A stretch of 64,000 bases of DNA from Sialis fuliginosa (Eukaryota > Arthropoda > Insecta > Megaloptera > Sialidae). The notes under the pieces were generated by a model. It saw only the letters and a list, made by a program, of their open reading frames with translations. It did no database searches and had not been told where the DNA came from. Numbering within the stretch: position 1 is the first letter of the stretch; every line of letters starts with the position of its first letter. The stretch spans positions 25,488,151 to 25,552,150 of the forward strand of contig OY540814.1 of assembly GCA_961205875.1 (NCBI GenBank). The letters are read 5' to 3'. Below, piece after piece: positions 38,726 to 39,430 of the stretch. Made by a program: the position numbers and the translations under genes.

Positions 38726-38800
38726 AAAAATTTAACCCAAATTACATAATTTCACGCTCGATTTATATGAATAATTTAACAGTTATCTAGAATCTAGTGT

Positions 38801-38919
38801 CTTAAACTAAAAATATACACCTTAACAGTTAGGCTCCTGATGAGGACTTCTTGTGAAGTCGAAACACGTGTCGAGTGACATTGTTTTATTGTGGTTAAGG
38901 TGTATATTTTTAGTTTAAG
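38801..38919 (+). ncRNA. Type I hammerhead ribozyme with extended stem I
   Basis: The core CTGATGA is at 38837-38843 and GAAA at 38861-38864. Stem II pairs GACTTC (38845-38850) with GAAGTC (38855-38860) around a TTGT loop, with one extra G at 38844. Stem III is minimal: A64-T71 and C65-G70 (last two digits of position) closing an ACGT loop, ending in the cleavage triplet GTC at 38870-38872. Stem I starts CTC/GAG (38834-38836 with 38873-38875), then an open region, then 26 perfect base pairs. All conserved core bases are present, so cleavage after 38872 is predicted. The extra G in stem II may lower activity. Short stem III is typical of hammerheads in Penelope-like elements. Confidence 0.8.
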
Positions 38920-38958
38920 TGACAAAGAAACCACAGTTTCTCCTTTTTTCCAGTAGGA
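38801..38958 (+). mobile_element. 158-bp insertion carrying a hammerhead ribozyme, with 12-bp target duplication
   Basis: The unit is flanked by a perfect 12-bp direct repeat, AGAATCTAGTGT, at 38789-38800 and 38959-38970. It consists of a 26-base arm (38801-38826), a ribozyme core, a loop, the exact reverse complement of the arm (38894-38919), and a 39-base tail with AGAAACCACAGTTTCTCC and a T-run. Direct repeats of this length and the hammerhead suggest an RNA-mediated insertion like Penelope-like elements or animal retrozymes. That assignment rests on known associations of type I hammerheads, not on any reverse transcriptase, which is absent here. It lies in intron 1. Confidence 0.75.
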
Positions 38959-39430
38959 AGAATCTAGTGTATTTTACACTAGCGCATTGGATCAGATGTT
39001 ATCTAAGGATGTAAATTTAATCTATAATAAACCTATTTAACATTGTTTTCACTTATCGCTAACTATTTACACGAAGATTGTTTTTTTACGACTTCATGAA
39101 ATTTACACAATATCTCCAAAACACAAAATTCCTCGTAAAACACTCTATCCATTAGTGAAAATTTTAATACAATCCGTTCAGTAATTACTGAAAAAATAAC
39201 CGCGCACAGACAGACAGACAGACGCGACCAAGAACTTTGTTTTATACTATATAAGATTTATAAATTTCTTTAAAATCCAAAAGTAAGACAAAACCCCGAT
39301 AAATATATTTTTTTTGTAATAACAAATAGATTCATAATAGTTAAAAAGTTATTCAAAGATGAAACTTAAAACCTATCAAAGTAACTCTCTCTGACGGTCC
39401 TTTAAATTCCGAAATATATATAGTTAAAAT

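What the first reader, a model, noticed from the sequence alone, without database searches (positions are those of the whole stretch)
38789..38970. Small insertion carrying an intact-looking hammerhead ribozyme with a 12-bp target duplication
Seen: all core bases of a type I hammerhead (CTGATGA, stem II, GAAA, two-base-pair stem III, GTC), enclosed by 26 perfect base pairs, inside a 158-bp unit flanked by AGAATCTAGTGT on both sides. Known: such hammerheads with short stem III occur in Penelope-like elements and animal retrozymes. Inferred: this is a tiny non-autonomous element that moves through RNA. The 26-bp outer stem enclosing the ribozyme is unusual and could hold the two cleavage products together.
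Basis: partly seen in the sequence, partly recalled or inferred. Interest (0 to 1): 0.8.

Follow-up and report, generated by a model that had tools for sequence, protein, structure and literature searches.

The report
Penelope-type retroelement insertion with hammerhead
A short jumping-gene scar in an unidentified genome carries a hammerhead ribozyme motif, and its long hairpin is best read not as part of the ribozyme but as a by-product of the way Penelope-like retroelements insert.

Summary
At 38789-38970 a 158-bp insert with a 12-bp target duplication carries all core bases of a minimal type I hammerhead inside a perfect 26-bp inverted repeat. Rfam RF00163 scores it 17.7 bits, below its threshold of 34. 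A second copy lies at 58660-58763, minus strand: same right-hand tail, own target duplication, inverted arm with another inner end, no hammerhead core. Arms are identical within each copy but differ by one base between copies, so the arm was most simply made anew at each insertion. The anatomy (inverted piece head to head, 32-39-nt tail at one end only, short duplication, ends 47-50 and 82-86 nt past the hammerhead cut) matches published Penelope-like insertions, including the measured start of reverse transcription in a green anole element (82-92 nt past its cut). In copy 2 each arm holds sequence absent from the other, which favours two separate cDNAs, one per target strand, over self-priming. 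The case rests on two copies and on layout; no Penelope gene was found and the genome search did not complete. Known kind, modest mechanistic interest.

The parts
38789..38800 (+). left copy of 12-bp target site duplication AGAATCTAGTGT
   Evidence: direct repeat D1
38801..38826 (-). inverted arm: reverse complement of 38894-38919, read as a second cDNA primed on the other target strand
   Evidence: mechanism inferred
38827..38958 (+). forward segment of the element (132 nt), read as 5'-truncated, ending in the tail
38834..38875 (+). minimal type I hammerhead motif; predicted cut between 38872 and 38873
   Evidence: RF00163 17.7 bits, below gathering score
38894..38919 (+). right arm of the inverted repeat; its outer end is the inferred inner start site
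38920..38958 (+). tail, present at one end only, between the two inferred reverse-transcription start sites
   Evidence: compared with PMC11167929 and PMC3846280
38926..38941 (+). possible stem-loop AGAAAC-CACA-GTTTCT in the tail, identical in both copies; in the best fold of the whole insert but not of the forward segment alone
38959..38970 (+). right copy of the target site duplication
58660..58763 (-). second copy: inverted arm 58763-58718 (matches 38922-38876 inverted) joined to forward segment 58717-58660 (matches 38896-38954); no hammerhead core
58765..58772 (-). left target duplication ATTAATAT of copy 2 (8 bp exact, or 10 bp with one mismatch if one base of the arm is shared)
   Evidence: 10 bp with at most 1 mismatch at about 0.9% of random positions at spacing 100, 8 bp exact at about 0.8% at spacing 158
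58652..58659 (-). right target duplication ATTAATAT of copy 2

Best explanation
The unit is a short, 5'-truncated insertion made by a Penelope-like retroelement machinery from a hammerhead-bearing pLTR-type RNA. A staggered break was made in the target. One strand (bottom) primed reverse transcription at an outer start site at the end of the tail (38954-38958) and gave the forward segment. The other strand (top) primed separately at an inner start site (38919-38922) and gave the inverted arm. The two cDNAs were joined head to head and the stagger was filled in, leaving the 12-bp duplication. Shown by sequence: the parts, two copies, two nearly repeated end points, arms identical within and different between copies. 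Inferred: the enzyme, the two priming events and the order of steps. The hammerhead is cargo from the RNA; the long stem is a by-product of insertion. In copy 1 the template ran through the cut site, so that RNA was uncut there, or had been rejoined. The confidence given is for a Penelope-type insertion with the arm as by-product; for the step of two separate primings alone I would say about 0.55.
For: Second copy with the same two end points within 3-4 nt. Tail of 39 and 32 nt on one end only; the published optional tail is 30-40 bp (PMC11167929) or 31 bp on one of two inverted pLTRs, with duplications of 8-10 bp where there is one (PMC3846280). Outer ends lie 86 and 82 nt past the hammerhead cut; the most common start in the green anole element is +111-118 with the cut at +26 (paper) or +29 (my count on its printed sequence), that is 82-92 nt past the cut. 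That enzyme cleaves and extends both target strands and starts in an AC-rich stem-loop. Arms are 26 of 26 identical in each copy (copy 2 by my count from the list) but differ by one base between copies. In copy 2, 38876-38895 is only in the inverted arm and 38923-38954 only in the forward arm.
Against: Only two copies, from one 64-kb window; the genome itself was never searched (16 of 16 requests unanswered). No reverse transcriptase or GIY-YIG gene was seen; Pfam was run on nine ORFs only. The frame from the ATG in the hammerhead stops after 12 codons and copy 2 lacks one base, so there is no coding link to a Penelope-like ORF. There is no tandem pLTR. The anole paper found no difference in start site between top and bottom strands, so it does not predict that one strand uses the inner and the other the outer site as in both copies here. 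The tail stem-loop is not in the best fold of the forward segment alone. The targets are A+T-rich, but so is the whole window (about 70%). A later deletion in copy 2 could mimic two independent cDNAs. The resemblance to the anole element is in layout; sequence similarity was not tested.
Confidence: 0.76

Rival explanations
1. An animal non-LTR retrozyme: a small element transcribed, cut by its hammerhead, circularised and mobilised in trans.
For: Type I hammerhead, size in the 150-450 bp range, low G+C, duplication longer than 4 bp (features given in PMC7229834). Penelope-like elements are the proposed helpers.
Against: Those described occur as tandem units; here one hammerhead core was found in 64 kb, the insert ends 82-86 nt past the cut, and copy 1 runs through the cut site. 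Copy 2 has no hammerhead core.
Confidence: 0.14
2. The head-to-head arms arose by self-priming (a cDNA or antisense RNA folding back and copying itself), as hypothesised for bdelloid Penelope elements.
For: Hypothesised in PMC3846280 from palindromic junctions; copy 1 alone is compatible because its inverted arm lies wholly inside its forward segment.
Against: In copy 2 neither arm is a subset of the other, so neither could be copied from the other unless a later deletion removed sequence.
Confidence: 0.15
3. A MITE-like DNA transposon with 26-bp terminal inverted repeats that has picked up a hammerhead-like sequence.
For: Perfect 26-bp inverted repeats and target duplication.
Against: The right arm is 39 nt (copy 1) or 32 nt (copy 2) away from the duplication; the tail is shared by both copies and so is part of the element; the arm's inner end differs between copies.
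Confidence: 0.03
4. Another retroposed transcript (LINE-driven, SINE-like) with a twin-priming inversion.
For: Duplication length and 5' inversion also fit LINE machinery (recalled).
Against: No poly(A) or short tandem tail at the right end; the inverted piece overlaps the forward piece instead of continuing it (usual twin priming, recalled); two nearly fixed internal ends; hammerhead present.
Confidence: 0.06

Closest known systems
Penelope-like element PAc (Poseidon of Anolis carolinensis), PMC11167929
   Same: Minimal hammerhead with one unpaired base before stem II; most common RNA start 82-92 nt past the cut; tail between two start sites; both target strands cut and extended in vitro; uncleaved RNA as the dominant template.
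   Different: Likeness in layout only; no ORF or pLTR tandem here; the paper's main text does not discuss inverted copies (its one use of 'inverted' is a blocked oligo end); its hammerhead cut only with protein present, and no start-site difference between strands was seen.
Penelope retrotransposons of Adineta vaga (Pen2a_Av and others), PMC3846280
   Same: Inverted pLTR head to head, tail on one of the inverted pLTRs, target duplications of 8-10 bp in several copies.
   Different: Those pLTRs are about 190-220 bp and belong to elements with an ORF, and some inserts have no duplication; here the whole insert is 158 bp. That paper favours self-priming; 'hammerhead' does not occur in its text.
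Animal non-LTR retrozymes, PMC7229834
   Same: Type I hammerhead, small size, low G+C, longer target duplications.
   Different: Tandem units there; not seen here.
Rfam RF00163 Hammerhead_1
   Same: Core bases and topology (alignment).
   Different: 17.7 bits against a gathering score of 34.

Membership tests
Penelope-like element (EN-containing) insertion | Inverted pLTR piece head to head at one end | tested here: met
   2 of 2 copies in the window
Penelope-like element (EN-containing) insertion | Optional 30-40 bp tail on one of the inverted pieces only | tested here: met
   39 and 32 nt, right end only, 2 of 2 copies
Penelope-like element (EN-containing) insertion | Short, variable target duplication | tested here: met
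   12 bp exact and 8 bp exact
Penelope-like element (EN-containing) insertion | Preference for A+T-rich targets | tested here: inconclusive
   Both duplications are A+T-rich, but the whole window is about 70% A+T
Penelope-like element (EN-containing) insertion | Minimal type I hammerhead in the pLTR | tested here: inconclusive
   Copy 1 has the core but is below the Rfam threshold; copy 2 lacks it, both its pieces lying 3' of the cut
Penelope-like element (EN-containing) insertion | ORF with telomerase-like RT and GIY-YIG endonuclease | not testable with these tools
   Genome search unanswered in 16 of 16 requests; the insert is too short to hold it
Penelope-like element (EN-containing) insertion | Tandem or partial-tandem pLTRs | tested here: not met
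   Neither copy has a direct pLTR repeat; both are short and 5'-truncated, so this does not decide. I file the insert as made by Penelope-type machinery, not as a complete Penelope-like element
Animal non-LTR retrozyme | Tandem units of 150-450 bp with hammerheads | tested here: not met
   One hammerhead core in 64 kb
Animal non-LTR retrozyme | Circular RNA expressed | not testable with these tools
   No RNA data
MITE / DNA transposon | Inverted repeats directly next to the target duplication | tested here: not met
   Right arm is 39 / 32 nt from the duplication
Rfam RF00163 | Score at or above the gathering threshold | tested here: not met
   17.7 against 34 bits

The most novel reading that the evidence does not exclude
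Head-to-head inverted ends of Penelope-like elements arise because each of the two target strands separately primes its own cDNA on sense RNA, one from the inner and one from the outer start site, so that genome scars keep a record of both priming events; copy 2, whose arms each hold sequence the other lacks, is such a record in a genome, and its inverted arm may end where a hammerhead-cut RNA ended (3 nt from the cut).
Probability: 0.45. Interest if true: 0.55.

Novelty: new member of a known kind. Interest (0 to 1): 0.36.

Why it matters
The element itself is of a known kind. What is useful is that very short copies show both ends of the insertion reaction at once. They make an open question, how Penelope-like elements get their inverted ends, testable by counting: self-priming predicts that one arm is always contained in the other; independent priming of both strands predicts private sequence in each arm, with outer ends fixed at the two start sites. 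They also speak against a tempting reading, that a 26-bp stem clamps the ribozyme.

Tried and rejected
Rfam at gathering score, whole window: nothing. The outer stem as a functional clamp: rejected on the second copy and on folding. MITE, Helitron (recalled: no target duplication expected) and LINE/SINE readings: considered and put low for the reasons under rivals. Other copies in the window: nhmmer with the 3' part gave only the four arms of the two copies above noise (next E 1.7); blastn with the hammerhead half gave itself, the 18 bases shared with copy 2, and then E 0.41. Exact pattern scans for the tail or the hammerhead in viral contigs and genome contigs: 0 of 5 scans found anything; these hold virus and prokaryote DNA, so this says nothing about animals. 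Pfam on nine ORFs: no family passed its cut-off; one weak CENP-B_N match (15 bits, cut-off 21.2). Papers: PMC5785218, PMC4209133 and PMC8557442, which by their titles bear on Penelope-like elements or their hammerheads, are not held and I have not seen them. Nine paper searches (listings) showed no paper whose title or abstract start links two-strand priming to inverted Penelope ends; of the papers listed I opened five (PMC7229834, PMC11167929, PMC3846280, PMC8969392, PMC7761336, each in part), and most subscription papers are not in the library, so I do not claim that the link is unpublished.

Corrections and limits of controls. Offsets from the ATG printed at the end are one too high, because the ATG starts at 38840; distances from the cut are not affected. 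The last line is out of frame and was replaced. The anole folding control is not identical to the test: there I forced stem I and kept the core unpaired, stem II formed by itself and stem III was not forced, on 90 nt, so its 9.3 kcal/mol is a rough yardstick only.

Full report
What is there. The insert lies at 38789-38970. An exact 12-bp repeat (38789-38800, 38959-38970) flanks 158 bp. Inside are a 26-bp arm (38801-38826), a forward stretch (38827-38958) that holds a minimal type I hammerhead (38834-38875), the matching arm (38894-38919), and a 39-nt tail (38920-38958). The motif is unlikely to be chance: 1 match in the window, 0 in 100 shuffles, and 0 in 200 Markov copies with a descriptor, written after the fact, that also asks for stems. 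It is nevertheless weak by covariance model: RF00163 17.7 bits against a gathering score of 34, and no family reaches threshold anywhere in the window.

A second copy. Comparing the region with the window showed a copy on the minus strand at 58660-58763 (sequence). It begins with an inverted arm matching 38922-38876, switches to the forward strand at 38896, and ends at 38954 in the same tail. It is flanked by ATTAATAT on both sides (8 bp exact; 10 bp with one mismatch). It holds no hammerhead core, since both of its pieces lie 3' of the cut. Together the copies give two outer end points: 38919 and 38922 for the inverted arm, 38958 and 38954 for the forward end.

Why the arm is an insertion product. 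The two arms of copy 1 are identical over 26 bp, and those of copy 2 over 26 bp by my count from the list. Between copies they differ by one missing base, and that state is shared by both arms of the same copy (alignment). An inherited palindrome would need matching mutations or conversion between arms; an arm made from the same RNA at each insertion needs one change. The inner end of the arm also differs (38894 in copy 1, 38876 in copy 2).

Why Penelope-like. In bdelloid Penelope elements the typical insert has an inverted pLTR, a 31-bp tail optionally on one of the inverted pLTRs, and in several copies duplications of 8 to 10 bp, while others have none (PMC3846280; passages seen). In the green anole element studied with purified protein, reverse transcription starts inside the RNA at two adjacent sites, the stretch between them is taken as the optional 30-40 bp tail, the most common start lies at +111-118, and both target strands are cut and extended (PMC11167929; parts 1 and 2 of 4 and passages seen). 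Here the tails are 39 and 32 nt and the outer ends lie 86 and 82 nt past the cut. In the anole element the same distance is 85-92 with the paper's figure for the cut (+26) and 82-89 with my count on its printed sequence (+29). The tail could form a stem-loop AGAAAC-CACA-GTTTCT (38926-38941), the same in both copies; it is in the best fold of the whole insert but not of the forward segment alone, where these bases pair upstream. The anole start is in an AC-rich stem-loop. These are likenesses of layout; no protein was found and sequence homology was not tested.

Two cDNAs or self-priming. The 2013 paper hypothesises self-priming, with an antisense template. In copy 2, 20 nt (38876-38895) occur only in the inverted arm and 32 nt (38923-38954) only in the forward arm, so neither arm can be a copy of the other, unless sequence was later lost by deletion. 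Separate priming from each target strand explains both copies. This rests on one informative copy, because copy 1 fits either model. Nor does the anole work predict which strand uses which site: it saw no difference in start site between strands.

The ribozyme. The forced active fold is 10.1 kcal/mol above the best fold for the forward segment, 11.2 with the arm and 9.2 for 64 nt round the motif, and stems I and III have pair probabilities of 0.0001 or less. The anole hammerhead, which cleaved only when its protein was added, is 9.3 above in a similar but less strict test. So folding energy does not tell active from inactive here, and the arm does not help. The anole hammerhead, as folded, also has one unpaired base between core and stem II. 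Copy 1 was made from RNA that was intact, or rejoined, across the cut. Copy 2's inverted cDNA stops 3 nt short of the cut, which could mark the end of a cleaved RNA; with one case this is only a lead, and the anole work speaks against it there: dead hammerheads inserted equally well and no RNA-seq reads ended at the cut.

Autonomy. The frame from the ATG in the hammerhead gives 12 codons and a stop, and copy 2 lacks one base further on. Whether the source is a full Penelope-like element or a small non-autonomous derivative is open, because the genome search did not complete in 16 of 16 requests and the organism is not identified. Five pattern scans of prokaryote and virus collections gave nothing.

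Verdict. Observation confirmed; interpretation partly supported. A new member of a known kind, with a useful hint on how its inverted ends are made.

Noticed in passing
34580-36394: Tandem array of a 184-bp unit, 9.9 copies, 98% matches: a satellite-like array 2.4 kb from the insert.
   Followed up: no
32426-33166 and 48589-49295: Near-palindromic foldback element of about 700-740 bp (self-inverted at about 92%), two copies 92-94% alike.
   Followed up: no
46595-46755: About 160-bp stretch that matches its own reverse complement at 85%, with a perfect inverted piece of 29 bp by my count from the list.
   Followed up: no
4510-5209 and 9626-9918: 281-bp tandem repeat with related inverted stretches 4.4 kb away.
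   Followed up: no
39132-39189 and 37358-37415: Two inverted, 84%-alike stretches; the first starts about 160 bp after the insert and is followed by CAGACAGACAGAC, which has the look of a LINE or SINE 3' end (recalled).
   Followed up: no
44467-44847 and 62881-63474: Two long ORFs that look like exons (Pro/Ser-rich; Gln/Ser-rich), without a Pfam match; an 87-bp tandem repeat (63391-63656) overlaps the end of the second. The host gene was not identified.
   Followed up: partly
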